Assembly: GCF_030140925.1 (NCBI RefSeq)
Contig: NZ_JARBWD010000001.1
Location: 2,480,001-2,544,000, forward strand
Origin: Parerythrobacter aestuarii
Lineage (GTDB): Bacteria > Pseudomonadota > Alphaproteobacteria > Sphingomonadales > Sphingomonadaceae
Length of the DNA: 64,000 bases
Reading direction: 5' to 3'
In this document: piece by piece, positions 32,136 to 51,513 of the stretch
Position numbering within the stretch: position 1 is the first letter of the stretch
Layout of the letters: each line of letters starts with the position of its first letter
The notes under the pieces: generated by a model
The model's database searches: none
Told to the model about the DNA's origin: nothing
What the model saw: only the letters and a program-made list of their open reading frames with translations
Program-made: the position numbers and the translations under genes

Positions 32136-33365
32136 TTAATGTGAGACCAGATTGGCAGGGCCTGCAAGCCATTCGCGGCCCTTGAGCATGCCGTTCCAGT
32201 AGATCCACGGCAGCACATCGGCCTTGAGCATCCACGACAGGCGCTGCGGCTTGGTGCCGTCGATCAGCCACGTCGGGAAGCTCGGCTGCAACTGCCCGCC
32301 ATAGCCGAATTCAGCGAGCACGATCTTGCCCCGCTCCACTGTCAGCGGACACGAACCATAGCCGTCATAGCCAGCCTTCGGACCATGACCATCAAGCTGC
32401 TGGAGCGCATTGACGGCAACAACCGGAGCCTGCTTGCGCGCTGCCGCCGCAGTCTTGGCATTGGGCATCGAGCCGGCATCGCCAAGGCCGAAGACATTGG
32501 GATAGCGGACGTGCTGCAAGGTGTTCTGGTCGACGTCGCAGAACCCGCTTTCCGCAGCCAGCGGGCTGTCAGCGAGGAATTGCGGCGCGACTTGCGGCGG
32601 CACGACATGGATCGTGTCGAATTCGTGGTTCACTTCGCCGTCTTCGCTCCTGAAGGTCGCCAGCTGGGCCGGACCGTCGATGGCGATGAGGTTGCTGCCC
32701 AACTGCAGACCGATATGATACTTCTCGACATAGTCCATCAGCGCAGGGACATAGTCATGCACTCCGAACAGCACCCCTCCGGCGTTGCGGAATTCCACCT
32801 CGATATCGCCCAGAACACCGGCACGCAGCCAGTGGTCGCAGCTCAGATACATCGCCTTCTGCGGCGCGCCGGCGCATTTGATCGGCATGGGTGGCTGCGT
32901 GAAGATTGCCCGGCCCGATTTCAGCCGCTGGACGAGGTCCCAGGTGTATGGCGCGAGATCGTAGCGGTAATTGGACGTGACGCCGTTCTTGCCCAGCGTC
33001 GCCTCCAGCCCGGAGATCTTTTCCCAGGCCAGCCGGATTCCCGGAGCCACGATCAGCAGGTCGTACGTGACGACAGTGCCATCGGCGAGCGTGACTTCAT
33101 TGTTGTCAGGCTGGAAGCTGGCGGCAGCCTGCCGGATCCAGGTCGCCGCCTGTGGCATGACGCTCGCCATCGAGCGGCGCGTGACAGGAGCATCGAAGAT
33201 GCCGCCGCCCACCATGGTCCAGCCAGGCTGGTAGAAATGCTCGTTGGCCGGCTCGACGATAGCGATATCGAGCGTCGGGCGGCGCTTGAGCAATGATGAC
33301 GCCGTAGCGATCCCCGCTGCGCCTCCCCCGATAATGACGACTTCGTGTTTGATGGCAGAGGTCAT
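32136..33365 (-). CDS. sqr: Type II sulfide:quinone oxidoreductase
   Basis: This 409-residue FAD protein oxidises sulfide at the cytoplasmic membrane face and reduces quinone, giving a persulfide. It has an N-terminal FAD motif VVIIGGGAAGIATA (9-22), the NVFGLGDAGSMPNAKTAAA FAD-contacting helix, and two redox cysteines, C164 in PIKCAGAPQK and C339 in YGSCPLTVE. That pattern is the mitochondrial-like type II SQR. The frame is open upstream to 33413, but ATG 33365 follows an AGGAG site at 8-nt spacing. Products would go to the persulfide dioxygenase encoded two genes upstream; electrons would go to the bd oxidase. Confidence 0.92.
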   Translation of the reverse strand: MTSAIKHEVVIIGGGAAGIATASSLLKRRPTLDIAIVEPANEHFYQPGWTMVGGGIFDAPVTRRSMASVMPQAATWIRQAAASFQPDNNEVTLADGTVVTYDLLIVAPGIRLAWEKISGLEATLGKNGVTSNYRYDLAPYTWDLVQRLKSGRAIFTQPPMPIKCAGAPQKAMYLSCDHWLRAGVLGDIEVEFRNAGGVLFGVHDYVPALMDYVEKYHIGLQLGSNLIAIDGPAQLATFRSEDGEVNHEFDTIHVVPPQVAPQFLADSPLAAESGFCDVDQNTLQHVRYPNVFGLGDAGSMPNAKTAAAARKQAPVVAVNALQQLDGHGPKAGYDGYGSCPLTVERGKIVLAEFGYGGQLQPSFPTWLIDGTKPQRLSWMLKADVLPWIYWNGMLKGREWLAGPANLVSH

Positions 33366-33393
33366 GATCCTACTCCTTACGACACTATCGCGT

Positions 33394-33804
33394 TCAGGCG
33401 ACACGGTCGGCAATCACCATCCCTGCCAGCAGCGCGATCACGAAAATGGCAGCGCCGACCGGCTCGATCACGAGCGCGGCAATGCCCGGCCCGGGGCACA
33501 GGCCGGCGATGCCCCAGCCGATCCCAAACAGGGCAGCGCCGCCAATCAGCTGCGGGGTCAGGTCGCGCCGGTCGGGGATGGCGAATTTTTCTGCGAACAG
33601 CGGCTTGAGCATGCGCGGCTGAATCAGCCAGGCGACCGCCATGACGATCACCGCTCCGCCCATTACGAAAGCGAGTGTGGGGTCCCACGCGCCGAAAATG
33701 TCGAGGAAACCGCGCACCCGGGCCGGATCGGTCATCCCGCCCAGCGCCAAGCCGGCACCGAACAGCGTGCCCGACACCAACGAAGGAACCAGCGCCTTGC
33801 TCAT
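33394..33804 (-). CDS. YeeE/YedE-type sulfur transporter, C-terminal half (DUF6691)
   Basis: The 136-residue membrane protein has about four spans and the signature [12 protein letters not shown] with one conserved cysteine, together with [20 protein letters not shown]. This is the second half of a YeeE/YedE protein, a family that moves thiosulfate or other reduced sulfur through conserved cysteines. The ATG at 33804 overlaps the stop of the first-half gene by 4 nt. In many proteobacteria these halves are separate genes next to BigR-type regulators and persulfide dioxygenase, as here. Confidence 0.88.
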
Positions 33805-34247
33805 GGCAGCACCTCCAGCTCCAGCGCATTCATCACAGCGACTGTAGCAATACCGCAAGTCATGAACGTGGCCGTAGCAACGATCGACCGGGGCGAGAGG
33901 CGGCTCATCCCGCATACCCCGTGGCCACTGGTACACCCGCTTCCGAGACGTGTGCCGAAGCCGACCACCAGCCCGGCAATCGCCAGCGGGATCGGCCCGG
34001 CGAAGCTGGCATCGAGGCCACCTTGCGCCAGTGCGACAATGGCCGCCCCGGCGGGCAAGCCGAGGAGGAAAGCCCATGCCTGGATCCCGGGCATGCCACC
34101 GCCGAGCCCGATGGCCCGGCTGGCGATGCCCGAAACACCGGCAATCCGTCCAGCAAGCAGCAGCATCACTGCCGCCGCAAGGCCTATGAGAATTCCGCCG
34201 CCAAGACCGGCCAGCGGCGTTGCGTCAGGATAACCGGGCGGAATCAT
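33801..34247 (-). CDS. YeeE/YedE-type sulfur transporter, N-terminal half
   Basis: The 148-residue membrane protein has about four spans and the motif [17 protein letters not shown], which holds the cysteines that relay sulfur in this family. It pairs with the next gene to form a full transporter. It overlaps the persulfide dioxygenase stop by 4 nt and the second-half start by 4 nt. Such tight coupling suggests equal production of both halves. The substrate (thiosulfate, sulfide or persulfide) cannot be told from sequence. Confidence 0.9.
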
Positions 34248-35176
34248 ACCGCGTTGACCGGAATCTTGATGTAGCTGACACCATTGGCTTCGGGCTCGGG
34301 CAGGTGTCCGCCACGGATATTCACCTGGACGCTCGGCATGATGAGGTCGGGCATGGCGAGCGTTTGGTCGCGCGCGGTGCGCATCTCGACAAACTCGTCT
34401 TCGGTCACACCGTCACGTACATGGACGTTGCCGGTGCGCTGCAAGCCGACCGTGGTTTCCCACGCGTAGTCATCGCGGCCCGGCGCCTTGTAGTCGTGGC
34501 ACAGGAAGAGGCGGGTATCCTCGGGCAGAGACAGCAGCCGCCGGATCGACCGGAACAGCTGCCGCGCATCGCCGCCCGGGAAGTCCGCACGTGCAGTCCC
34601 GAAATCGGGCATGAAGATAGTGTCGCCGACAAAGGCCGCATCACCAATGATGAAAGCCATATCCGCCGGCGTGTGCCCGGGAACATGCAGCGCGATGCCT
34701 TGCAGCTCGCCGAGTTTGAAAGTCTCGCCATCGGTGAAGAGCTTATCGAACTGCGAGCCATCGCGCTGGAATTCGGTCCCGGCGTTGAACAGTTTGCCGA
34801 AAACGTCCTGCACGCGAATGATATCGGCTCCGATCGCCAGCTTGCCGCCCAGCTTCTCCTGCAAATAGGGCGCAGCCGAGATATGATCGGCATGAGCATG
34901 AGTCTCGATCAGCCATATCACTTTCAAATTATTCGAAGTGACGTATTCGACTATCCGGTCTGCCGACCCGTGCGATGTCCGCCCCGAGGCCGCTTCATAG
35001 TCCAGCACCGAGTCAATGACAGCTGCTTCACCCGTCGCTTCGTCATGCACGACATAGCTGATCGTATTCGTTGATTGATCGAAAAAGCCCGCGATCGTGG
35101 GGCGCAGCGATTCGTTGACCCGCGCCTGCTCGACCTGCTTCGACGCCGCAGCGAGGGGGAGATCTTCCTTGCTCAC
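34244..35176 (-). CDS. Persulfide dioxygenase-like MBL-fold hydrolase
   Basis: The 310-residue metallo-beta-lactamase-fold protein has the metal motif THAHADH (92-98) with H93 and H95, [14 protein letters not shown], and the iron-site aspartate in [22 protein letters not shown]. These features match ETHE1/Blh-type persulfide dioxygenases, which convert glutathione persulfide and oxygen to sulfite. A GTG start at 35176 is chosen because GGAG lies 7 nt upstream; an in-frame ATG at 35191 has no ribosome-binding site and lies inside the palindromic operator. It is the first gene of the leftward sulfide operon. Confidence 0.88.
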
Positions 35177-35187
35177 CTGAGTTCTCC

Positions 35188-35217
35188 ACATAAATTACAC
35201 ATTTTATGTATATGTGT
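35188..35217. promoter_or_regulatory. Overlapping AT-rich palindromes in the divergent promoter (ArsR-type operator)
   Basis: Two interlocked inverted repeats lie between the persulfide dioxygenase and peroxiredoxin genes. ACATAAA (35188-35194) pairs with TTTATGT (35203-35209), and ACACAT (35197-35202) pairs with ATGTGT (35212-35217). The stretch is strikingly AT-rich for this genome. ArsR-family repressors bind such dyads and the ArsR gene is the second gene of the rightward unit, so self-regulation and control of both divergent operons are likely. Binding itself is inferred. Confidence 0.7.
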
Positions 35218-35252
35218 TGATTTTGGAGAGTCAAGCGGTATATCTTGGGGCA

Positions 35253-35894
35253 ATGGATACAAACACGACCCATCACACATCGCCTGCCTTGCGGATCGGC
35301 GATCACTTGCCGGATTTCGAAGCCCGCAGCACCGTCGGACCGGTCAGGTTGTCAGACTTTCGCGGGCGCTGGCTGGTGTTATTTTCGCACCCGGCCGATT
35401 TCACACCGGTTTGCACCACCGAGTTTGTCGAACTGGCCCGCAACGCCGGCGAATTCGAACGGCGCGACTGCGCCCTGATGGCGATTTCCATCGACAGCCT
35501 GTTTTCGCACTTTGCCTGGTTGCGGATGATCCGGGACCGGTTCGATATCGAAGTCCGGTTTCCGATTGTCGAAGACCCGACCATGGTGATCGGTCGCGCG
35601 TTCGGCATGGTCGGGCCGCAGGATCATGACAGTGCCGCAGTGCGGACGACCTTCTTTGTCGATCCCGATGGCGTGATCCGGGCGATGACAAGCTATCCGG
35701 CCAATGTCGGTCGCTCGATCCCGGAAATGCTTCGCACCCTTGATGCTCTGCAGGCTGTTGATCGTGGAGAAGGGCTGGCCCCTGCCAACTGGCAGCAGGG
35801 GGGCACACTTCTCAAAGTGCCGACGACGAGCCTCGACGATGTCTTTGCCGCCAAGGACGGAACTTCGTGGTTCCTGCAGGAGAACAGCAAATGA
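35253..35894 (+). CDS. Peroxiredoxin (1-Cys Prx6-like)
   Basis: The 213-residue thioredoxin-fold protein has the peroxidatic motif HPADFTPVCTTEF with C54. No clear resolving cysteine follows at a standard position (1-Cys type). It removes peroxides or persulfide by-products in the cytoplasm. ATG 35253 gives the normal N terminus but has no good ribosome-binding site; a TTGATT/TATATC promoter-like pair with 16-nt spacing would start RNA almost at the ATG, so the message may be leaderless. It diverges from the sulfide operon and overlaps the ArsR gene by 4 nt. Confidence 0.9.
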   Translation: MDTNTTHHTSPALRIGDHLPDFEARSTVGPVRLSDFRGRWLVLFSHPADFTPVCTTEFVELARNAGEFERRDCALMAISIDSLFSHFAWLRMIRDRFDIEVRFPIVEDPTMVIGRAFGMVGPQDHDSAAVRTTFFVDPDGVIRAMTSYPANVGRSIPEMLRTLDALQAVDRGEGLAPANWQQGGTLLKVPTTSLDDVFAAKDGTSWFLQENSK

Positions 35895-36247
35895 GCAGGA
35901 CCATCCCCGATCCCGACCTCGACATGATCGAACAGCTGAAAGCGGCCGCGCATCCGCTGCGCTACCGCATTATCGCGGCCTTGCAGGGCGGCGAACTGAA
36001 TGTCGGCGAGCTGGAAGAGGTTACCGGCATCGGCCAGCCCGGCCTGTCTCAACAGCTTGGGGTCCTGCGGAAGGCTTCGCTTGTCCGCAATCGCAAGGAA
36101 GCCAAGCTGGTTTTCTATTCACTCGATACCGAAGCCATGGGCCGCCTTGGAGCGTGCTTCGACAAGCTGGCAGGACGCGATGCCCAAGCGACAAACAGGC
36201 CGCGCCGGCCAGCGCCAGGCGCGGCCAATTTCGCCCGCATGTCATGA
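35891..36247 (+). CDS. ArsR-family transcriptional regulator (BigR/SqrR-like context)
   Basis: The 118-residue winged-helix protein has the ArsR fold: HPLRYRIIAALQGGELNVGEL, then the recognition helix GIGQPGLSQQLGVLRKASLV, then the wing RKEAKLVFYSLD. The position beside persulfide dioxygenase, YeeE/YedE and SQR is that of BigR/SqrR, which sense persulfide through two cysteines. Here only one cysteine exists (C89); the first sensor position, in the NVGELEEV stretch, is not a cysteine. The signal may therefore be sensed differently. The ATG overlaps the peroxiredoxin stop. The likely target is the palindrome at 35188-35217. Confidence 0.9.
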   Translation: MSRTIPDPDLDMIEQLKAAAHPLRYRIIAALQGGELNVGELEEVTGIGQPGLSQQLGVLRKASLVRNRKEAKLVFYSLDTEAMGRLGACFDKLAGRDAQATNRPRRPAPGAANFARMS

Positions 36248-36256
36248 CCTGGATTA

Positions 36257-36877
36257 TTATCTCGAAACTTCGAGGTACTGCGTCAGTGCCAACATCGACA
36301 GCGGCTCGGTAAACGCTTCGACAGGATCGTCGAGCGGCTCTGTGCCCGCTTCGAGCATGTCCTCGGACGCCCATTGGAATCTGACCACGGACACGCCTTC
36401 GCCGTCGGCTGTTTGTTCGGCATCGTAGCTTTCCGTCAGCTTGTTCCAGTTGCCATTGTCCATCCATTCGAGCGTAAGGACTGTGAAGCGGGGGCGCGTG
36501 TATTGCGTCATTTCGATGAACCCACCGCATTCAGTAGCCAGGCATTGGACGACCGTTCCACCGCCCTCCCCTTCGGAGCGGATCGCTATGGTGGCCGGGG
36601 CATCGCGTTCACCCGGCGAGGCACAGACGGACAGGCCGAGCCCGAAGTCGTCCAGCACATTGCCACTGAACAATAGCTGCTCTCCAGCCTGGCACAGAGA
36701 CGATGGAGCAGGATCGGCAGCGGTCAAGAACATGGCTGGGGGTGCTTTGGCTGGCACCTCTTCGGCCGGCGGATCGGCGGGCACATTATCCTGTGCCAGT
36801 GCCGGATGTACGGACACCAATGCGGCGGCGGCAGCGACACCGAGGACAGGTGCGAGGCGCGTGGCGGGATGGATCAT
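36257..36877 (-). CDS. Secreted protein of unknown function (206 aa)
   Basis: I do not recognise this family. The 206-residue protein has a signal peptide ending about ALAQDN (residue 28-31), a Pro/Ala-rich stretch, and a compact domain with four cysteines (SSLCQAG, LSVCASPG, VQCLATECGG) that could form two disulfides. It is probably periplasmic. Its stop lies 9 nt from the convergent ArsR stop. A perfect ATGGGG-N6-CCCCAT palindrome sits 52 nt upstream of the start. The same palindrome lies before the kinase and between the regulator gene and a second secreted-protein gene, so the four genes are probably one regulon. Confidence 0.75.
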   Translation of the reverse strand: MIHPATRLAPVLGVAAAAALVSVHPALAQDNVPADPPAEEVPAKAPPAMFLTAADPAPSSLCQAGEQLLFSGNVLDDFGLGLSVCASPGERDAPATIAIRSEGEGGGTVVQCLATECGGFIEMTQYTRPRFTVLTLEWMDNGNWNKLTESYDAEQTADGEGVSVVRFQWASEDMLEAGTEPLDDPVEAFTEPLSMLALTQYLEVSR

Positions 36878-36929: not shown

Positions 36930-36947
36930 ATGGGGCGGATACCCCAT
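36930..36947 (-). promoter_or_regulatory. 18-bp palindrome ATGGGG-N6-CCCCAT, copy 1
   Basis: The two 6-bp arms are perfect inverted repeats. Read toward the leftward gene at 36257-36877, the 6-nt centre is TATCCG, almost the same as copy 3 (TATCGG) read toward its own rightward gene. It lies 52 nt from the start codon, a typical activator or operator position. The probable binder is the LuxR-type regulator at 38986-39615. Confidence 0.75.
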
Positions 36948-36949
36948 CG

Positions 36950-38914
36950 TCAACCGCCTCTCGGTACTGTCAGGACAAAGCGGCAACCTTCACCCACCTT
37001 CGAAGTAATCGCGAGATCGTATCCCGGCTGGGCGGCAAAGGCCCGTACGAGCGCGAGCCCCAGGCCGTGCCCTTCGCTGCCCTCGCCCTTCGCGTAGGGC
37101 TGCAACGCCTCCTGCAACACCTGCGCATCCATTCCGCAGCCGTCATCCTCCACCTGGATAGTGACGCCCCTGTCGCCCTCCTCCGCCGACAGGCTGATAT
37201 TCGAGGCCTGTGCATGCTTCAGGGCGTTTGACACGAGGTTGCTCACGGCTCGCATCAACGCGACCGGCTCGGCCCGAACCAGCGCATCGCTGGGCTGAAC
37301 TTCCAGCGCAACTCCTGCCGCCTTGGCCTCACCGCGGAACATGGCCCGGCAATTGTCAAGGACCACGCCGACCGGGAAGCTCTCTGCGCCTTCATCGGGC
37401 TTTTCCCCGGCAAGGCTGTCATCGGGCGAAGCATCCGCCAGCCCGCTCTCCGTCACGCCTTCGAGGTAATCGAGTGCCGCGGCGAGTTTCCCGGCTGCGG
37501 CTTCGTCTCGCGCAGCAATGTCGCGCAAGCCTTGCCGCAACGACAGCAAGGGCTGCTGCAAGTCATGTGACGTCGATGCGAGCTTGCTACGCAGGCTCTC
37601 TGCCCGGTCGCGTGCAGCATCGTAGCGATCACGGCTTTGCTTCAGCGCATCGGCCAGCGCCAGCTTTTCCCTTGTTGTGGCGACCTCTGCCGCCAGAGAG
37701 CGGTTCAACTCGGCCTGCATCGCCAGCATGCGCACCATGATGGCGACGAAGAACGCCAGTGCTTCGAACAGCAGCGTGGCGTGGAAATAGTCGAGCGCGA
37801 CCGTCATCGGGAATTGCCCCGGCGCAAGCAACACGCCTGCCATTACCGCGACTGTAAACAGGATCGCCAGCGAGCCCGCCATGAATGGCACCGCCCCCAG
37901 AACCCGGTGCCGCCACGCCAGCCACGCAATGCCGAAATAGGCCATTGCCACCACCGGCACGAGCGCGAAGACAAGCCACCGCAGCGCATCACTGGTCCAG
38001 AACACGGCACTTGCCGCCGTCACCACCAGCAACGCACCTTGTAGCACCTTGATCCACCGGTTCGCTTGCGGACTGGTGTCAGGCAGGTTCGAGAACAGCC
38101 GCGCGAACTGCAGCACCGCGATCATCATTCCTGCGAGCAGGATGAGGTTCGCCGGTTCATAAGCCCACATCGCGCCAGGCCATAGGAAACGGTGCAGATA
38201 ACCTTCGTTGTTGGCGACAAACAGCGTGCTGAGACCAACGTAAGCGACGAAGGCCAGAGCCAGCTTCCAACCTACCAGCCGCGCCACTATCAAGGCGACC
38301 AGCGCCAGCGCCAGGATCGCGCCGTTGATCGCCCAGTTCGTGCGTGCTTCCTGCATATGGGCAGTGCGCATCCGCTCAGGCGTAGCGATGGTTATCGGCA
38401 TCCAGCTTCCGGTGGTTGACCGCAGGCCCACCAGGATCTCTGCTGTCTCTCCTGCCGCCATCGACAAGGGGGCGACTAGGTACTGGCTGACAACCGGGCG
38501 CTCGTCAAAGCGGGTCGTCCTGTCGACTGCCAACAACGTCTCTAACGCACCATCCGCCGCGACCTTATCGACCTGCAGCTGCTCGACGAAAGGACGCTGG
38601 ATATCGAGCATCCATTCGCCGGTCTCGCCGGTTCCATTGTGCACCGTGAAGAGCACCCACACCGCCCCTTCCTGGTCGCCGAAATCGATCCAGGGCGAAG
38701 TCACCGGAGCAAATTCAGCCTGCCGTGCCAGCGCCGCAGCCGGATCGAGTGGTCCAGCGTCGGCTATGAGGTAGCGCATGCTCTCAAATGGCTGCGCGTG
38801 GCTATTGCCAGTGGGCAGCTCAACCGGTTGCGAAGTCTGAGCTTGAGCCACAATCGGAACCAGCAGCAGCGCGGCGGCAAGGACGGCGAGGAAACGGGCG
38901 ACGGTCTTTTTCAT
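36950..38914 (-). CDS. 7TMR-DISM sensor histidine kinase
   Basis: The 654-residue kinase begins MKKTVARFLAVLAAALLLVP, a signal peptide. A periplasmic domain of the 7TMR-DISMED2 type follows, then seven membrane spans (about 185-400), a coiled-coil linker, the phospho-acceptor H450 in STSHDLQQPL, and an ATPase domain with NLVSNALKHA (about 559-568), DDGCGMD and GHGLGLALV. It senses an envelope signal, possibly a carbohydrate as in other DISM proteins (inference). It follows the regulator gene on the same strand and has its own upstream palindrome. A longer frame to 38989 exists, but ATG 38914 gives the proper signal peptide. Confidence 0.9.
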   Translation of the reverse strand: MKKTVARFLAVLAAALLLVPIVAQAQTSQPVELPTGNSHAQPFESMRYLIADAGPLDPAAALARQAEFAPVTSPWIDFGDQEGAVWVLFTVHNGTGETGEWMLDIQRPFVEQLQVDKVAADGALETLLAVDRTTRFDERPVVSQYLVAPLSMAAGETAEILVGLRSTTGSWMPITIATPERMRTAHMQEARTNWAINGAILALALVALIVARLVGWKLALAFVAYVGLSTLFVANNEGYLHRFLWPGAMWAYEPANLILLAGMMIAVLQFARLFSNLPDTSPQANRWIKVLQGALLVVTAASAVFWTSDALRWLVFALVPVVAMAYFGIAWLAWRHRVLGAVPFMAGSLAILFTVAVMAGVLLAPGQFPMTVALDYFHATLLFEALAFFVAIMVRMLAMQAELNRSLAAEVATTREKLALADALKQSRDRYDAARDRAESLRSKLASTSHDLQQPLLSLRQGLRDIAARDEAAAGKLAAALDYLEGVTESGLADASPDDSLAGEKPDEGAESFPVGVVLDNCRAMFRGEAKAAGVALEVQPSDALVRAEPVALMRAVSNLVSNALKHAQASNISLSAEEGDRGVTIQVEDDGCGMDAQVLQEALQPYAKGEGSEGHGLGLALVRAFAAQPGYDLAITSKVGEGCRFVLTVPRGG

Positions 38915-38949
38915 GGCTGTCAGATTAACGGAGGCGCTGAGCTGGTGGG

Positions 38950-38967
38950 ATGGGGTCGATTCCCCAT
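38950..38967 (-). promoter_or_regulatory. 18-bp palindrome ATGGGG-N6-CCCCAT, copy 2
   Basis: Perfect 6-bp arms, centre AATCGA when read toward the kinase gene, whose start is 35 nt away. It lies in the 71-nt gap between the regulator stop and the kinase start, so the kinase may have its own regulated promoter inside the operon. Confidence 0.75.
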
Positions 38968-38985
38968 CTGACGCCACGTGCAGTC

Positions 38986-39615
38986 TCACAGTTGGGTATG
39001 CTCGTCGAGCAAGCCCTCGCGCAGGGCATGGACCAGCAGTGCCGAAACCGAGTTCACGCCCAGCTTCGCCATCAGGCTGGCGCGGTGTTTTTCCACCGTC
39101 TTGGGGCTGATGAAGAGCTTCTCACCGATGGCTACATTCTGGTGGCCGGCAGCAATCAGCGCCAGCACTTCACGTTCGCGATCGGTCAGCTGCTCGCGCT
39201 CCGGCTCGGCCGCCAGCTTGTCGGAGACCCCCTGCGCCACATATTTCCCGCCGGCGAGGATTTGGCGAAAGCCCTCACGCATCTCTTCTGGCGCGGCACT
39301 CTTGAGGAACAGGCCGTCGACCCCGGCGGCCATCCAGTCCGCCAACATGCCGGTGGACGTAAATCCGGTGACCACGGCCACCTTGGTCTCGGGCGACCAG
39401 CGCCGCGCTTCGCCATAGACCTGCACACCCCTTGCCAGCGGCATGGCCGCATCGAGCAGCAACAGGTCGGGCTGGTGCTCCTTGACCAGGGCGATGGTTT
39501 CAAGGCCGTTATCGGCCTCCGCCACGATCTCGACATTGCCCAGTTCAGCCAGGATGTCCGCCAACGAGCGGCGCACAATGGCGTGATCGTCGGCAATGAT
39601 GGCGCGATAGCCCAT
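38986..39615 (-). CDS. LuxR/NarL-type response regulator
   Basis: The 209-residue protein has a receiver domain (acidic D9/D10, phosphorylation site D55 in LLLLDAAMP) and a C-terminal LuxR helix-turn-helix (LTDREREVLALIAAG, then KLFISPKTVEKHRASLMAKLGV). It is the partner of the following histidine kinase. The ATG at 39615 has GGGGAGGG just upstream and gives the standard MGYRAIIADDHAIVR start; the frame is open a little further. LuxR-type regulators bind symmetric sites as dimers, and the three ATGGGG-N6-CCCCAT palindromes near these genes are the obvious candidates. Confidence 0.92.
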   Translation of the reverse strand: MGYRAIIADDHAIVRRSLADILAELGNVEIVAEADNGLETIALVKEHQPDLLLLDAAMPLARGVQVYGEARRWSPETKVAVVTGFTSTGMLADWMAAGVDGLFLKSAAPEEMREGFRQILAGGKYVAQGVSDKLAAEPEREQLTDREREVLALIAAGHQNVAIGEKLFISPKTVEKHRASLMAKLGVNSVSALLVHALREGLLDEHTQL

Positions 39616-39672
39616 GACCCTCCCCTGTCTCTGCGAACGCACCTTAGGGTCGCATCCTGCGGAAAAGCAATG

Positions 39673-39690
39673 ATGGGGTATCGGCCCCAT
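39673..39690 (+). promoter_or_regulatory. 18-bp palindrome ATGGGG-N6-CCCCAT, copy 3
   Basis: Perfect 6-bp arms with centre TATCGG on the plus strand. It lies about midway between the divergent regulator gene (start 57 nt away) and the secreted-protein gene (start 56 nt away), so one site could control both. The centre matches copy 1 in gene-relative orientation except for one base. Confidence 0.75.
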
Positions 39691-39746
39691 GGAGCCAGCC
39701 GGGGTTCACTGACACTGTGCAGGGATCACAAACACGGAGGATCACC

Positions 39747-40568
39747 ATGAAAGCCGCATTCATCAAGACATCGTTCGCCAGCATCGCCACCGCCTTGGCG
39801 CTGCAAGCCGGAGCCGCGCAGGCCCGTGTCCAGTATATCTGCCCCGAACTCGACACCGCCAGCAACACGCTGTCGGTTAGCGTCAAGAGCGGCTGCATGA
39901 GCAGTTCCACTAGCTATGTCGGAAATGATCTTTCGATAGCAGTCGACCAGCAACGCGCGCATATTGCCATAACCGGCGATATCGAGTTTGGCGGCGGCGG
40001 GCAGGTCGTGACGGCCGACTGCATGGGGGCAAAGTCGATCGCGCTGACCGCCGAGGGGATCGAGGCCCGGCGCTATACCGTCTCTTATGGCGACGGCTAC
40101 ATCGGCCTCGCCAACCTGCTTGACGATCCGGCGCCAAAGGAATGTTTGCAGACTGCCCAGGCCAAGCTCCCGTACCGCTATCCAACCGTTCACAAGACGG
40201 AATTCCTCGGCTGGTCGACAGACCGGTTCCCGGGCCGCGAGGAATGGCGCTCTGCCACGCCGATGGAACTCGTCTCGAACGTGTTGGGCACCTATCCCGA
40301 GACCGACGAAGGCAATTTCGACATGGAGCTGAGCTTCAAGAAGATGATGTGGGCTGGCTGGCCCGCCCAACGCACAATGCCTCCGCATGAACCGTTCCTC
40401 GCAGTCCGGATCGAGCGCCACGGGCTGCTGGACGATTCGGTCTCCGGCGACCGCTATTTCATCGCCATGCGCTTCGACGGCGAATGGAAGGTCGAGGAAC
40501 TATGGGGCCAATCGATGTGCAGTCGGGGCGAGAATGCCGGACAATGGACCGGAAAGCCTTGCCTCTAG
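39747..40568 (+). CDS. Secreted protein of unknown function (273 aa)
   Basis: I do not recognise this family. The 273-residue protein has a clear signal peptide (MKAAFIKTSFASIATALALQ, cleavage near AQARVQ) and six cysteines outside it, so it is probably periplasmic with disulfides. A conserved-looking C-terminal end (RYFIAMRFDGEWKVEELWG) suggests a compact beta-rich domain. A GGAGG site precedes the ATG. It is transcribed away from the two-component genes behind a palindrome shared with them, and ends head-on with the secretion adaptor gene, the two stops sharing the bases CTAG. Confidence 0.75.
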   Translation: MKAAFIKTSFASIATALALQAGAAQARVQYICPELDTASNTLSVSVKSGCMSSSTSYVGNDLSIAVDQQRAHIAITGDIEFGGGGQVVTADCMGAKSIALTAEGIEARRYTVSYGDGYIGLANLLDDPAPKECLQTAQAKLPYRYPTVHKTEFLGWSTDRFPGREEWRSATPMELVSNVLGTYPETDEGNFDMELSFKKMMWAGWPAQRTMPPHEPFLAVRIERHGLLDDSVSGDRYFIAMRFDGEWKVEELWGQSMCSRGENAGQWTGKPCL

Positions 40569-41716
40569 CGCTCCTGCAAGGACTGCCGCGTCGTCTTGAG
40601 GATCGGCTTGGTGATGTATTCCCACACAGTCTGCGAGCCGGTGAGGATCTCCACACTCGCTGTCATCCCCGGCTGCAGGTCAATCGAGCGATTGTCCTCG
40701 CGCGGGGTCATGGGAGACGTATCGACCTCAAGATTGACCCGGTAGTAGGTTTCTACCGAACCGTCATCGCGTTCCTGTGACAGTGTATCGGGGCTGATGT
40801 AGACCACATCGCCATCGCCTGATCCATAGATCGCGCTGTCGTAAGCATCGAAGTTGACTCTCGCGCGCTGGCCGATCTCGACAAACGCGATATCGCGGGG
40901 TGGCACCTGCGCTTCAACGATCAGGCGTTCGCCGGTGGGCACGATCTGCAGCACTTCGTCGCCGGGCCGCAGCACGCCGCCAACCGTGGTAAGGCGGACG
41001 TATTTGACGATCCCGTCGGTTGGCGCGACCAGTTTTGCCCCTCGCAGGCTGTCCTCGCGCTGGGTAAGGACCTGCTCAGCCCCGACCAATTCTTCCTCGG
41101 TCTTGGCGAATTCAGCCTGTAGCTCGCGGACATAATCCGAACGGATGTTACTGATCTGCCCTTCTGTCTCGACAATGGCGCGCTGCATCCGGATCACTTC
41201 CGAACGCGCGACATCGCCGGTCTCCACCAACGGCAGGTTGAGGTTGAGTTCCTGCTGTTGCAGTTCCACCGTTCGCTGCAGCGAGCGGATCTGCGAGGCC
41301 AGCGCCGCCTTGCGCCGCGCGAACAGCTGGCGCTGGTTGGCGGTAAATTCGGGATAGCCTGAAAGGCTGGCAGGGAAACTCAGTGGCTTGTCGAACAGCT
41401 CGGCATCGATCCGTGCCATGCGGCTCCGCAGTGCAGCGACACGGGCCCGCGCTTCCTCCACCGTGGCAGCCAATTGCACGGTGTCGAGTTCGACCAGCAG
41501 CTGCCCTGCCGTCACCCGGTCCCCTTCACGCACGTAGATCTGGCTAATCGCACCGCCTTCCTCGCTTTGCACCACTTGGACGCGGGCGAAAGGCACAACA
41601 CGCCCTTGCGCCCGAGTGACCTGGTCGAGTTCGGCCCAGTTGGCCCATCCGACAAAGCCGACCAGAGCGAGGCTGATCGCGATAATGATCCAGTGCGAAG
41701 TCCTGATCCGGTTCAT
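40565..41716 (-). CDS. HlyD-family type I secretion adaptor
   Basis: The 383-residue periplasmic adaptor links the inner-membrane ABC transporter to TolC. It has one N-terminal span (IIIAISLALVGFVGWAN), a split lipoyl-type domain with RVVPFARVQVVQSEEGGAI, a long coiled coil (about 90-215), and the C-terminal DAYDSAIYGSGDGDVVYIS beta domain typical of PrsE/HlyD. Its start overlaps the transporter stop by 4 nt. Its stop overlaps the stop of the convergent secreted-protein gene. Together with the next two genes it forms a full type I system. Confidence 0.93.
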   Translation of the reverse strand: MNRIRTSHWIIIAISLALVGFVGWANWAELDQVTRAQGRVVPFARVQVVQSEEGGAISQIYVREGDRVTAGQLLVELDTVQLAATVEEARARVAALRSRMARIDAELFDKPLSFPASLSGYPEFTANQRQLFARRKAALASQIRSLQRTVELQQQELNLNLPLVETGDVARSEVIRMQRAIVETEGQISNIRSDYVRELQAEFAKTEEELVGAEQVLTQREDSLRGAKLVAPTDGIVKYVRLTTVGGVLRPGDEVLQIVPTGERLIVEAQVPPRDIAFVEIGQRARVNFDAYDSAIYGSGDGDVVYISPDTLSQERDDGSVETYYRVNLEVDTSPMTPREDNRSIDLQPGMTASVEILTGSQTVWEYITKPILKTTRQSLQER

Positions 41717-43854
41717 TGAGACGCTTTCCTTGGGCCGCGTGTCGTCACAATGGTGTCCAAGGGTATCTTGCCGCCTGGCTCCGGCCCCTTAGGAGCGCCG
41801 GGAGGTGCCTTGGGCAGGAGATCGCGCAGTACTTCGGCAGTCGGACCATCGCGTACGATCTTGCCGCCGGCCATGGCAATGACCCGATGGAAGCGGGTCA
41901 GCAGCGGCAGCTTGTGCGTCACCATCAACAGGATCGCGTCATCGTCCAGCCGGGCATGGATGGCGTCGAGCGCGGCGTTTTCCGTGTTTTGGTCGAGCGA
42001 AGCGGTCGGCTCGTCGAGCAGCCATACCTTGGGCTGCGACAGCAACAGGCGATTGATGCCGACAAGGCTGCGCTGCCCGCCCGAAAGCCCGCGCCCGCCT
42101 TCCTGGATCGGTAACGCCAAGCCTTCTTCACGCGATGCGATCATGGTCTTGAGCCGGGTTTCTTCAGCCAGAACCATGATTTCGTCGTCGGAAATATCGC
42201 CGACGCCCATTGCCAGGTTGTCACGCAAGGTGCCGTTCACAAGCCGGGCGTCCTGCGCGATATAGCCGACATGACGACGGGCAATGTCTTCCGCCACTTG
42301 CCCCAGGTCGAGCCCTCCAAGTGTCACACTGCCCTGATGTGGGGCGTAGAGGCCGGAAAGCAGCTTGAGCAGGGTCGACTTGCCTGACCCGATGCCTCCG
42401 ACGATAGCGATGCGCTCACCCGGCTGGATCGAGAGTCGGGCAACGTCCAGCGCGGGTTCGGTCGCCTTGGGATACACGAACAGGACATCTTTCAGTTCAT
42501 AGCCGCCATCGATGGCTTGCGGGCGCAGTGCCCCCGCCCCCGACGCCGGATCGAGCGGTAGCTGAATGATTGCATCAAGCGCCTTGAGCGAGGAGCGGGC
42601 ATAACCCCACTGGACGATCAGGTTGGGCAACTGCGCCACCAGCGGGCCATTGATCCGCCCCGAGATGATCGAGCAGGCCAGCAACGCACCGGTGGTGATC
42701 TGTCCGGTGGCCGCCAGATAGGCACCCCAGCCCATGATCGCGACATAGGACACCTGCTGGATGGTCGAGAACAGCGAGCCGGCCACAGCCTGCGCTTTCT
42801 TGACCGGCAACTCGTAGTGATTGACTTCACGTACCAGGCGGTTCCAGCGGCCCATCATGAACCAGCCGCCGCGATTGGCCTTCACTGTCTCGGCCGCATC
42901 GAGCGATTCTACCAGCATGCCGTTCTTGCGGTTGCCGCTGACTTGCGCCCGGTCTGTGCCGGTGCGGATAATCTTCGACAGGGCCAAGGCAAAGAGCAAC
43001 GCGATCGGCAGGCTGACGATCGGCACGAGCGCCAGCTTGCCGCCAATCATGGCAATCACGATGATGAAGAAGATGGCAAACGGCAGGTCGGCCAGCATGA
43101 ACAACGAACCGGAAGACAGCACCTGCCGGATCTGTTCCTGCCCGCGCAATTGCGCCGCCATCGTACCAATCCCCGGTGGCCTGGCATCAAGCCGGATGGC
43201 CTGCGTGCGGGCGAAAAAGAACTCGCTGACCTCGGCATCAATGTCCTGTGCCTCGCGCTCGATCAGCAAGGCCCGCAACGAGCGCAGGCTAAGGTCCAGC
43301 ACCAGCGCGAATGCGACCCCGGCAGTGAGCACGAAAAGCGTGTCGAAACTCGCCAGCGGGATCACCCGGTCATAGAGCTGCATGGAATAAAGCGACGTGG
43401 CCAGTGTCAGCATATTGGCGAAAATCGTCGCCAGTCCGGCCATCACCAAGGCATGCTTGCGGCGCTTGATCGCGCGCCAGAATACCGCCATCGCTCCCCC
43501 GCCTGAGCTGGCGAGCGGATCGGGCAGCTCAAGCGCGAAGAACTCCTGCTCTTCGTTGAACTCCAGGGTATCGCGCGAGCCGGCGAGCTGCATCGCGTGT
43601 TCGCTGTCCCATTGCCGCGCGACCGCCCAGCCATGCACCGGATCATGTACGAGCAGCGGGAACTGGAACGCCCGCGGCTTGCCATTGACCTGCCGGGCCG
43701 GCTCCCAACCAAGCACTGCAGTGAGGCCCGCGAGTGCATCAGCACCGTCAGGCAAGGTCGCCTCCCGCAGATCCGCACGCCATTGCGGTGCCAGAGGTGT
43801 GCCTGTCAGCCGGGCATAATGCTCAATCGCCCGTTCAATCGTGCCGTCGGTCAT
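41713..43854 (-). CDS. Type I secretion ABC transporter (LapB-like)
   Basis: The 713-residue protein has an N-terminal C39-peptidase-like domain (about 1-115) without an obvious catalytic cysteine, so it probably only docks substrates. A six-span membrane domain follows, then an ATPase with Walker A GGIGSGKSTLLKL, signature GRGLSGGQR and Walker B VWLLDEPTAS. This layout is that of LapB-type exporters of RTX adhesins and proteases. It overlaps the adaptor and TolC genes by 4 nt each. The two RTX-type proteins encoded upstream on the same strand are the likely cargo. Confidence 0.93.
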   Translation of the reverse strand: MTDGTIERAIEHYARLTGTPLAPQWRADLREATLPDGADALAGLTAVLGWEPARQVNGKPRAFQFPLLVHDPVHGWAVARQWDSEHAMQLAGSRDTLEFNEEQEFFALELPDPLASSGGGAMAVFWRAIKRRKHALVMAGLATIFANMLTLATSLYSMQLYDRVIPLASFDTLFVLTAGVAFALVLDLSLRSLRALLIEREAQDIDAEVSEFFFARTQAIRLDARPPGIGTMAAQLRGQEQIRQVLSSGSLFMLADLPFAIFFIIVIAMIGGKLALVPIVSLPIALLFALALSKIIRTGTDRAQVSGNRKNGMLVESLDAAETVKANRGGWFMMGRWNRLVREVNHYELPVKKAQAVAGSLFSTIQQVSYVAIMGWGAYLAATGQITTGALLACSIISGRINGPLVAQLPNLIVQWGYARSSLKALDAIIQLPLDPASGAGALRPQAIDGGYELKDVLFVYPKATEPALDVARLSIQPGERIAIVGGIGSGKSTLLKLLSGLYAPHQGSVTLGGLDLGQVAEDIARRHVGYIAQDARLVNGTLRDNLAMGVGDISDDEIMVLAEETRLKTMIASREEGLALPIQEGGRGLSGGQRSLVGINRLLLSQPKVWLLDEPTASLDQNTENAALDAIHARLDDDAILLMVTHKLPLLTRFHRVIAMAGGKIVRDGPTAEVLRDLLPKAPPGAPKGPEPGGKIPLDTIVTTRGPRKASQ

Positions 43855-45248
43855 CGTCCGGCCTCCGTCGCTACGGGCTGCCAGCGACAGGTCCGGGCAA
43901 GGATCCTGGCCGTGCCCTGCGCAATCAGGACCCGTGCATCGCCTTCGGAAATGCGTGCACCGGCAGCTTCGCGTACCGCATTCATCACATCGAGCCAGCT
44001 GCGCCGCCCGGCAATGAACTGGCGCTGGTAGCTCGCGACAATCGCGTCGGCGGCATCGGCAGCGAGCTCGCCTGTCGCGATGCGCGCGCGTGCCGAACGC
44101 ACCTGGACATAGTCTCGCCGCATGTCTTCGCGCACCTGTCGCTCTGCCTCCGCATACCGGGCCAATGCCTGCCGGACGCGGGCATCGGCGCTATCGATAG
44201 CAGAAAATTGCGCGCCGCCATTGCCCAGTTGCATACGCAGGACAATCGCCGCACGCGATCCGGTGATCTCGTTCTGCGACAATTGCAGCAGCACTTGCGG
44301 CAGCAGCTGTGCCCGCGCAAAGTCGCCGTCCGCTTCGGCGGCGGCTACCAGGCTCGTCAGTGCCGCAAGGCTGGGATCGCAGCCCATGGCTTCGGCAACC
44401 GCCATGTCTTCAGGAGGCAAGAGGTCCGCCACACTCGGGAGCGGCAACCCCGGCTGGATTGCCATGCCGCCAGTCAGCTCGACCAGTCGCAATTGCGCGC
44501 TGTCGCGATTCTCGCGCGTCGAAGCAATGTCGAGCTCGACCTGCGCCGTGCGCGACCGGCCCAGCGTCAGGTCGGCCAATGGCGAAACCTCCTGTTGCAC
44601 GCGCCGTCCGATCGAGGCCAGCAGTTCGTTGTGCTGGTCGAGGCTGTCTTCCAGCACCGCCAGCCGCTGGTCCGCTAGGACGATTTGGTAGTACGCCTGC
44701 ACAACATCCAGCACGATCTGGCGGCGCGCCAGTTCCACGCGGTCTTCCCCCGCGCGCAAGGAGGCTTTGGCCCGCTGGATCTCGCTGCTGATCCGCCCAC
44801 CTAGCCAGATCGGCTGTTCGAGCGCAGCATTGAGGGCAATTCCGTCCTGATCGGCAATGGTCGAACCGCGCGTCGAGCTTAGCACTTCGACCGACAGGCT
44901 AGGGAAGCGTCGCCACTTCGCCCCTCGGTATTCGGCCGCGAGGGCCTCCGCTTCGGCCTCTGCACCATCTACCGCCGGATGCGTCTGCGCTGCCGAGGCA
45001 GCGGCAAGATCGAGCGGCTGCGGGATAGCGATAGGCGTCGCCGGGCGGACAACCGTCGCATCTTCAGACGGCGGGCCGTAGACGGGAGGAGCCTCTGAAC
45101 CGGTCGCAGTCGGCATGCTTGCCGCCGTTTCGCTCTCCCTATCCTGCGGACGCAGCACAGCAGGGTTGACCGTGAAACACGCCAGCATCGCCACGCAGGC
45201 TGCATGACGCATTGCTGGGGCCGGAACGGGGCTGCGGGAAAGGATCAT
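43851..45248 (-). CDS. TolC-family outer-membrane efflux protein
   Basis: The protein (465 residues from ATG 45248) has an N-terminal hydrophobic signal (about MRHAACVAMLACFTV). A Pro-rich linker follows, then the repeated long-helix pattern of TolC proteins, for example VLDVVQAYYQIVLADQRLAV and the C-terminal SYQRQFIAGRRSWLDVMNAV. It forms the outer-membrane exit duct. No start has a strong ribosome-binding site; ATG 45212 would give a cleaner signal peptide. It is the first gene of the three-gene secretion operon; 183 nt without a recognisable feature separate it from the metallopeptidase gene. Confidence 0.9.
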   Translation of the reverse strand: MILSRSPVPAPAMRHAACVAMLACFTVNPAVLRPQDRESETAASMPTATGSEAPPVYGPPSEDATVVRPATPIAIPQPLDLAAASAAQTHPAVDGAEAEAEALAAEYRGAKWRRFPSLSVEVLSSTRGSTIADQDGIALNAALEQPIWLGGRISSEIQRAKASLRAGEDRVELARRQIVLDVVQAYYQIVLADQRLAVLEDSLDQHNELLASIGRRVQQEVSPLADLTLGRSRTAQVELDIASTRENRDSAQLRLVELTGGMAIQPGLPLPSVADLLPPEDMAVAEAMGCDPSLAALTSLVAAAEADGDFARAQLLPQVLLQLSQNEITGSRAAIVLRMQLGNGGAQFSAIDSADARVRQALARYAEAERQVREDMRRDYVQVRSARARIATGELAADAADAIVASYQRQFIAGRRSWLDVMNAVREAAGARISEGDARVLIAQGTARILARTCRWQPVATEAGR

Positions 45249-45431
45249 CGACCTGCGATCTGCGTGTACCAAGGAGCCGGTCGTCAGGCGTCCAAACCCT
45301 TGCTTCTGCTGTGCTTAAAGGCAAGAATTAGGCCGGAAGAGCCATTTTGACAATGTGTCGTCGTGGAAGGCACCGGACCGGGGCAGGCCTCCGACCCACC
45401 CCGGCAACCGGTCGCTTCCTGCCGAATTGCG

Positions 45432-48203: not shown

Positions 48204-48257
48204 TTTCTTCACTTCCAGTTCGTGGCCTAACCTTGATCCAGGCGGCCTGGTTTCAGA

Positions 48258-48650
48258 CTAAGTGTCCATCAACATCTTCGCCACGGCATCCGCCAGTCTG
48301 TCGAGATCACGCATGGCAAGTGATCTATCTACCACATCGATGGCGATCGGCGGATAGGCCTTGTCACCGTTCGTCGCGACAATACTCGCTTCCATCGTTC
48401 CCCGCTTTTGGAACCGGAGTGTTACGGAAAGGTTGTCTGCCTTCGCGCTGGCATCACCCTGTTGGAGAGCCTCGCTCACACGGCGTTCGAATGCCGCACA
48501 CACGCTCGCTTCCGTGGCTTCGGAAGAAAGATACTGCACACCTTCGGCCGAACAGTTCGCCAAACCACCGTTACTCACACAAGCCACCAGCAGCGGCGCA
48601 GTCAGGATCGAAAACGCTGGGCGCAAGGGGATAGGCACTCGATAGGACAC
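48258..48650 (-). CDS. Small lipoprotein of unknown function (130 aa)
   Basis: The 130-residue protein has a lipoprotein signal with lipobox LLVAC (cysteine near residue 24), then a small soluble domain with two more cysteines and a charged C-terminal helix (DLDRLADAVAKMLM). I do not recognise the family. The GTG start has AGGAGGAGG about 11 nt upstream. It lies between the two secretion substrates on the same strand, so it may help secretion or fold the cargo at the envelope; nothing in the sequence proves that. Confidence 0.7.
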   Translation of the reverse strand: MSYRVPIPLRPAFSILTAPLLVACVSNGGLANCSAEGVQYLSSEATEASVCAAFERRVSEALQQGDASAKADNLSVTLRFQKRGTMEASIVATNGDKAYPPIAIDVVDRSLAMRDLDRLADAVAKMLMDT

Positions 48651-48678
48651 GCTGCATCAATCCTCCTCCTGTGCGATC

Positions 48679-48702
48679 TGCCCCGGGGCAGGGCTCCGGG
48701 GC
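48679..48702 (-). terminator. GC-rich hairpin between RTX protein and lipoprotein genes
   Basis: GCCCCGG (48680-48686) pairs with CCGGGGC (48696-48702) around a 9-nt loop, and TGCCCCGGGGCA (48679-48690) is itself a palindrome. It lies just after the 48742-51399 gene and before the lipoprotein start. There is no T-run, so it could be a weak terminator or an RNA-stabilising hairpin. Confidence 0.45.
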
Positions 48703-48741
48703 ACGATAACGCAAGGCTGGTATTTTGTCGCGTCAGCCTAG

Positions 48742-51399: not shown

Positions 51400-51513
51400 T
51401 CGCAAACTCCATGAATGGCGCTGCCGCGCGCAATGTGGTTGAATTTTTCAGGATGCGACCCTGCTCTGTCTTTAGGGAAAGGGCTAACACAAAAAAGCCT
51501 GTGGTCAATCCAG

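What the first reader, a model, noticed from the sequence alone, without database searches (positions are those of the whole stretch)
36930..39690. Three copies of an 18-bp palindrome define a small regulon around a two-component system
ATGGGG-N6-CCCCAT occurs exactly at 36930-36947, 38950-38967 and 39673-39690. All three are in non-coding DNA, each 35-57 nt from a start codon: secreted protein 1, the kinase, and the divergent regulator/secreted protein 2. In gene-relative orientation the centres are TATCCG, AATCGA and TATCGG, so the consensus goes beyond the arms. A 12-base arm match three times in 2.8 kb, always before a gene, is far from chance. The two secreted proteins are the probable outputs.
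Basis: partly seen in the sequence, partly recalled or inferred. Interest (0 to 1): 0.8.

Follow-up and report, generated by a model that had tools for sequence, protein, structure and literature searches.

The report
Two-component switch for secreted-protein genes
Three identical 18-letter DNA signs mark the start points of a sensor gene and two secreted-protein genes; the same sign, tied to the same sensor-regulator pair, recurs across many Alphaproteobacteria, usually in front of secreted proteins that include pore-forming-toxin types, so it looks like one dedicated, undescribed switch for an outward-facing arsenal.

Summary
Observation confirmed. ATGGGG-N6-CCCCAT occurs at 36930, 38950 and 39673. 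Only one more perfect copy exists in the 3.02-Mb genome, before another secreted-protein gene; two one-mismatch intergenic copies also precede secreted-protein genes.

Orthologous kinase/regulator loci carry the motif across Erythrobacteraceae, Roseibium and Rhodobacteraceae. From 70 non-redundant sites the element is WTGGGG-KATYNN-CCCCAT, asymmetric, pointing at the target gene, with no -35 box and a -10 (TANNNT) locked 22 nt downstream. That is the geometry of an activator site centred near -43.

In 401 family genomes, clustered motif copies coincide with the kinase (6/6 against 1/395). Motif presence follows the regulator's recognition helix ([KR]HR 51/59, others 2/21). Chance copies elsewhere mostly lie inside genes.

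In relatives the motif precedes MACPF operons or RTX/HlyC genes; the window's genome has no MACPF. Best reading: an undescribed 7TMR-DISM kinase/NarL-type system activating its own kinase gene and an exchangeable secreted arsenal. DNA binding by this regulator is inferred, not shown.

The parts
36930..36947 (-). Site A: ATGGGGTATCCGCCCCAT, promoter element of secreted protein 1 (52 nt before ATG)
   Evidence: forward spacer TATC; also precedes the secreted-protein-1 homologue in L042, L050, L051, L053-L055
36902..36907 (-). Predicted -10 TAGGGT, 22 nt after site A
   Evidence: 0 mismatches to the motif + -10 pattern
36257..36877 (-). Secreted protein 1 (206 aa, P0003), no Pfam or NCBIfam family
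   Evidence: homologues beside the kinase in relatives
38950..38967 (-). Site B: ATGGGGAATCGACCCCAT, promoter element of the kinase gene (35 nt before ATG)
   Evidence: 34-35 nt before the kinase in many relatives
38922..38927 (-). Predicted -10 TAATCT, 22 nt after site B
36950..38914 (-). Sensor histidine kinase: signal peptide, 7TMR-DISMED2, 7TMR-DISM_7TM, H-box SHDLQQPL, HATPase_c (654 aa, P0001)
38986..39615 (-). Response regulator, NarL/FixJ type: receiver (D9, D10, D55, T83, K105 conserved) + LuxR/GerE HTH with recognition helix KTVEKHR (209 aa, P0002)
39673..39690 (+). Site C: ATGGGGTATCGGCCCCAT, promoter element of secreted protein 2 (56 nt before ATG); shared intergenic region with the regulator but oriented away from it
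39713..39718 (+). Predicted -10 slot CACTGT, 22 nt after site C
39747..40568 (+). Secreted protein 2 (273 aa, P0004), cysteine-containing family of unknown fold
   Evidence: predicted model not confident (pTM 0.50) and no fold match

Best explanation
The palindrome is the operator of the adjacent NarL/FixJ-type response regulator, used as an activator site that stands in for the -35 box. A periplasmic signal perceived by the DISMED2/7TM kinase leads to phosphorylation of the regulator at D55. A regulator dimer then binds WTGGGG-KATYNN-CCCCAT and recruits sigma70-type RNA polymerase to a -10 (TANNNT) fixed 22 nt downstream, so the site spans about -52 to -35. Targets are the kinase gene itself (positive feedback) and genes for secreted proteins. 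In this genome these are secreted proteins 1 and 2 and the unlinked P0005, P0006 and P0007. In relatives the same promoters drive operons of secreted MACPF-domain and LamG proteins (Erythrobacteraceae) or RTX proteins with an HlyC acyltransferase (Roseibium, Rhodobacteraceae). Shown by sequence: motif, -10 lock, orientation, target set, co-occurrence, helix correlation. Inferred: phosphorylation, binding, activation, signal, and that the secreted set acts against membranes or other cells.
For: Genome-wide: 4 perfect copies in 3.02 Mb. The motif + -10 pattern has 0-mismatch hits only at the kinase, secreted-1 and secreted-2 promoters. Unlinked copies precede secreted P0005, P0006 and P0007. A P0005 orthologue, 68% identical, has the motif and lies near rplJ in a second genome. 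P0005 homologues sit with motif beside the regulator in Roseibium. A P0006 homologue, 44% identical, lies in the regulator locus of L043. 70 non-redundant sites: asymmetric consensus, TA at offset 23 in 29/70 against a background of 1.6% (p=4e-33), A24/T28 in 39/70. Kinase and multi-copy motif: 6/6 against 1/395 genomes, p=1e-12. Recognition helix [KR]HR 51/59 with motif, others 2/21, p=3e-10; variant helix RTAEKHR goes with variant operator ATGGGT-N6-ACCCAT. Whole-genome scan of 22 genomes: 33 hits, reversed control 0; in Nioella, whose regulator locus has no site, the two genome-wide sites precede a P0005 homologue and another small secreted protein. In genomes without the kinase, chance copies lie inside genes 22/27 and 1/27 has the spacer consensus.
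Against: No binding, expression or phenotype data. The Fisher tests are not corrected for phylogeny. Eight of 59 [KR]HR loci show no ATGGGG-N6-CCCCAT copy within one mismatch and 8 kb; two of these carry the variant operator and one has sites elsewhere. Site C's -10 (CACTGT) is weak. P0006 and P0007 sites have a one-base mismatch or a shifted -10. The signal-peptide and gene calls in the site survey were made by simple scripts. The window's own genome has no MACPF gene, so the 'arsenal' reading comes from relatives.
Confidence: 0.85

Rival explanations
1. The motif is bound by a different DNA-binding protein encoded elsewhere, and its presence beside this two-component system is secondary.
For: No direct binding data. 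NarL-type sites are not predictable with certainty from the protein sequence.
Against: Multi-copy motif occurs only with this kinase/regulator pair across 401 genomes save one. Motif presence tracks the regulator's recognition helix even among 45-60% identical regulators: the KTVDNHR type lacks it, 9 of 10. A variant helix goes with a variant operator.
Confidence: 0.08
2. The palindrome works as RNA (hairpin, terminator or 5'-leader element) rather than as a protein-binding site.
For: G-rich/C-rich arms could pair in RNA, and two copies lie between co-directional genes.
Against: It lies upstream of a position-locked -10, so outside the transcript it would control. Arms are invariant in sequence with no compensatory change; the first base is T in 22 of 70 sites, breaking the outer pair on one side only. 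The orientation is asymmetric. No T-run follows in the sites read.
Confidence: 0.03
3. The regulator is a repressor of these genes, the site blocking polymerase at the -35 region.
For: A site spanning about -52 to -35 could occlude polymerase. Kinase autoregulation can be negative.
Against: There is no -35 consensus to repress (columns 1-6 after the motif carry no information), and the fixed spacing to a bare -10 is typical of class II activation.
Confidence: 0.07

Closest known systems
NarL/FixJ-family two-component regulons (NarL, GacA/UvrY, MctR)
   Same: Receiver + GerE HTH regulator, palindromic operator near -40, kinase encoded beside it
   Different: Operator ATGGGG-N6-CCCCAT is not, from general knowledge, the NarL heptamer 7-2-7 or a GacA box. 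NCBIfam cut-offs for MctR (118.7 of 300) and UvrY/GacA (108.4 of 280) are far from met.
LadS/RetS 7TMR-DISMED2 kinases of Pseudomonas (PMC7695008)
   Same: DISMED2 periplasmic domain + 7TM + kinase core. LadS senses calcium through DISMED2 (PMC7695008).
   Different: Here the kinase has no receiver domain, has its own cognate regulator gene next to it and (inferred) acts directly on promoters, not through Gac/Rsm.
Bacterial MACPF proteins (e.g. BT_3439, PMC2954219)
   Same: PF01823 domain in a secreted bacterial protein
   Different: In the relatives studied here it sits in an operon with LamG under the two-component system's motif. The held library has no paper on such control or on MACPF in Erythrobacter.
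RTX toxin operons (hlyC-hlyA type)
   Same: HlyC acyltransferase followed by an RTX-repeat protein
   Different: Preceded by the ATGGGG-N6-CCCCAT promoter next to this kinase/regulator pair.

Membership tests
NarL/FixJ (LuxR-type) response regulators | Response_reg receiver with phospho-acceptor Asp and acidic pocket, plus C-terminal GerE HTH | tested here: met
   PF00072 4.5e-20, PF00196 1.4e-18; D9, D10, D55, T83, K105 invariant in six orthologues
7TMR-DISM sensor kinases | 7TMR-DISM extracellular domain + 7TM + signalling output domain | tested here: met
   PF07696, PF07695, PF02518 all above cut-off
LadS/RetS hybrid kinases | Hybrid kinase with C-terminal receiver(s) | tested here: not met
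   HATPase_c ends at residue 652 of 654; no receiver matched
MctR / GacA-UvrY equivalogs | NCBIfam score above curated cut-off | tested here: not met
   118.7 vs 300 (MctR), 108.4 vs 280 (UvrY/SirA/GacA)
Class II activator-dependent sigma70 promoter | Activator site abutting or overlapping -35 at fixed distance from a -10, with no -35 consensus | tested here: met
   -10 TANNNT locked 22 nt after the site; no information in the -35 position
Class II activator-dependent sigma70 promoter | Regulator binds the site and raises transcription | not testable with these tools
   needs gel shift, footprinting, transcription-start mapping
MACPF-encoding regulon | MACPF gene present under the motif | tested here: not met
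   No PF01823 match in the window's genome; MACPF-type genes at the relatives' loci L039-L043, L050-L055 and L058 (Pfam itself run on L039, L042 and L061 only)
Aegerolysin family (P0005 homologues) | Aegerolysin fold or sequence similarity | tested here: inconclusive
   Model of a Roseibium homologue (pLDDT above 80 outside the signal peptide) hits ostreolysin A, PUD-1 and CDC domain 4 only weakly, E 6e-3 to 0.1, TM 0.3-0.4; no sequence match in PDB for P0005

The most novel reading that the evidence does not exclude
A widespread alphaproteobacterial attack switch: one 7TMR-DISM kinase/NarL-type pair wired to a spacing-locked, -35-less promoter whose secreted cargo is exchangeable between lineages (MACPF + LamG, RTX + HlyC, lectin-like and possible membrane-binding proteins). 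The regulon element would be a reliable marker for finding new secreted pore-forming or lectin proteins of unknown families.
Probability: 0.5. Interest if true: 0.75.

Novelty: new member of a known kind. Interest (0 to 1): 0.62.

Why it matters
It gives a concrete operator and promoter, testable regulator and target genes for a two-component system that seems undescribed, and it links several orphan families of secreted proteins (secreted 1, secreted 2, P0005, P0006) to MACPF and RTX pore-forming-type proteins by shared control. The element is specific enough (zero reversed-control hits in 22 genomes) to list further members of the arsenal in marine Alphaproteobacteria, many of which live with algae, sponges and corals.

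Tried and rejected
Autoregulation of the regulator from site C: rejected as the main function, because regulator-facing sites are reversed and have no -10 in register, 0/6. Chance palindrome: rejected. RNA hairpin: rejected. MACPF elsewhere in the genome: none. The replicon of the fourth copy: contig C2 carries genes that read as groEL, rplJ, rplL and rpoB, so it is probably chromosomal and not a plasmid. Fold of secreted protein 2: model not confident and no PDB match. Fold of the P0005 family: only a weak aegerolysin/actinoporin-like lead. Alternative palindrome for KTVDNHR regulators: none found, although an ATGGGT-N6-ACCCAT variant surfaced in L115/L116. Literature: no paper in the held library combines MACPF with two-component systems in Alphaproteobacteria or with Erythrobacter, or was seen to describe this regulon.

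Full report
OBSERVATION. The three perfect copies are real and exactly placed. Reading the region and translating the genes from the start codons used here puts site A (36930-36947) 52 nt before secreted protein 1, site B (38950-38967) 35 nt before the kinase, and site C (39673-39690) between the regulator (57 nt) and the divergent secreted protein 2 (56 nt). The whole genome of 3.02 Mb has four perfect copies. The fourth, on contig C2, lies 84 nt before a small secreted protein, P0005. Of the four further copies with one mismatch, two lie inside ORFs and two lie 67 and 59 nt before secreted proteins P0006 (DUF1036, marginal) and P0007.

GENES. The kinase has 7TMR-DISMED2, 7TMR-DISM_7TM and HATPase_c domains; the regulator is a receiver plus GerE/LuxR HTH protein; secreted proteins 1 and 2 match no Pfam or NCBIfam family.

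RELATIVES. In 401 genomes of the family the motif occurs in 56, mostly once. Genomes with two or more copies are the six that carry the orthologous kinase plus one; Fisher p=1e-12. In kinase-less genomes the single copies lie inside genes in 22 of 27 examined and lack the spacer consensus in 26, so they are background. Four other genomes of the window's own genus lack the kinase, so distribution is patchy. A scan of named genomes gave close loci (Erythrobacter, Pontixanthobacter, Novosphingobium; regulator 73-87% identical) and distant ones (Roseibium/Labrenzia, Ruegeria, Sphingorhabdus, Afifella, Nioella and others; 43-62%). Most carry the motif beside kinase, regulator and secreted-protein genes.

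PROMOTER ANATOMY. From 70 non-redundant sites with a secreted-type or kinase gene downstream, the element read towards the gene is W-TGGGG-K-A-T-Y-N-N-CCCC-A-T. It is asymmetric: column 1 is A or T, column 18 is T in 97%, and the AT of the spacer is at 8-9 in 50 sites against 3 in the reverse position. Nothing resembling a -35 follows. At offset 23-28 there is T-A-N-N-N-T (A 80%, T 63%). TA at offset 23 occurs in 29/70 against 1.6% background (p=4e-33). With a -10 at -12..-7 the site spans about -52 to -35, centre -43.5. In the window's genome the composite pattern has 0-mismatch hits only at the secreted 1, kinase and secreted 2 promoters, one mismatch at P0005 and two at P0006 and P0007, among a few chance hits at that level. 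Seen from the regulator gene the -10 slot is empty in all six loci examined, and the spacer is reversed in five and ambiguous in one. Site C therefore belongs to secreted protein 2, and the regulator is probably not activated from it.

WHO BINDS. Regulators with [KR]HR in the recognition helix have the motif within 8 kb in 51 of 59 loci; others (mostly KTVDNHR and KTVD/E-T/A-HR types) in 2 of 21. An unbiased search for palindromes finds ATGGGG-N6 as the leading one in the [KR] group, a variant ATGGGT-N6-ACCCAT with the RTAEKHR helix, and none in the KTVDNHR group. A genome-wide scan with the refined motif in 22 genomes gave 33 hits and no hits for the reversed control. In six KTVDNHR genomes the single hit lies inside a gene. 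In Nioella, whose regulator locus has no site, the two genome-wide hits precede a P0005 homologue and another small secreted protein: an unplanned prediction that came true. P0005 also has a motif-bearing orthologue near rplJ in a second Erythrobacter genome, and Roseibium loci carry its homologues beside the regulator with motif. P0006 has a homologue inside the regulator locus of another genus.

WHAT IT CONTROLS. In close relatives the motif-flanked neighbour operon encodes a secreted MACPF protein and a LamG protein. In Roseibium/Rhodobacteraceae relatives it precedes RTX-repeat proteins, three of them with an HlyC acyltransferase. Other targets carry ricin-type lectin, SH3 or pentaxin/LamG domains. 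The window's genome has no MACPF gene, so its version holds the switch and small secreted proteins but not the pore-former. A model of the P0005 family is a beta-sandwich with weak similarity to aegerolysins and other membrane-binding domains; this is a lead only. Secreted protein 2 gave no confident fold.

MECHANISM. The most likely chain is signal, 7TMR-DISM kinase, phospho-regulator, class II activation of kinase and secreted-protein promoters. Sequence shows the sites, the promoter geometry, the targets and the co-evolution. Phosphotransfer, binding, direction of control and the signal are inferred. DISMED2 in LadS binds calcium (PMC7695008), which suggests but does not show a similar input.

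KNOWN OR NEW. The kind of system (NarL-family two-component regulon) is well known. This particular regulon, operator and toxin-type cargo were not found in the held literature. Filed as a new member of a known kind, with an unusual cross-lineage exchange of cargo.

Noticed in passing
window 40565-51405 (-): A type I secretion system (HlyD-like adaptor 40565-41716, LssB-type ABC 41713-43854, TolC-like 43851-45272) lies beside secreted protein 2, followed by an M10/PPC metallopeptidase (45432-48212) and an 887-aa RTX-repeat protein (48742-51405). No copy of the motif is there.
   Followed up: partly
window 32136-36247: Sulfide-oxidation-like cluster: sulfide:quinone-reductase-like oxidoreductase, YeeE/YedE-type transporter, Blh-like persulfide dioxygenase, peroxiredoxin and a BigR-like ArsR repressor.
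   Followed up: partly
L050:6331 and L042:7615: A small secreted protein (151-162 aa, sequence ...KGNKSAKK.../...NKGSTAKSAKK...) lies divergently from the regulator under the motif in two relatives; it was not looked for in the window's genome.
   Followed up: no
L089:12485-14332, L081:12957-14774: YfbK-type VWA protein conserved beside the Roseibium version of the locus, between the regulator and the P0005 homologue.
   Followed up: no
L115, L116: Variant operator ATGGGT-N6-ACCCAT in two MAGs with an RTAEKHR recognition helix; a natural pair for testing operator/helix co-evolution.
   Followed up: partly
L062, L063, L068, L070, L072, L073, L076, L090, L096, L118: Sister regulators with a KTVDNHR helix next to a similar kinase but without the motif (L076 has one single-mismatch copy before an RTX/lipase-type gene); their operator is unknown.
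   Followed up: partly
L163:1501 and L045:4670: A refined-motif site conserved in two genomes before a 144-aa lipoprotein next to a DUF885-like peptidase; a possible further regulon member.
   Followed up: partly
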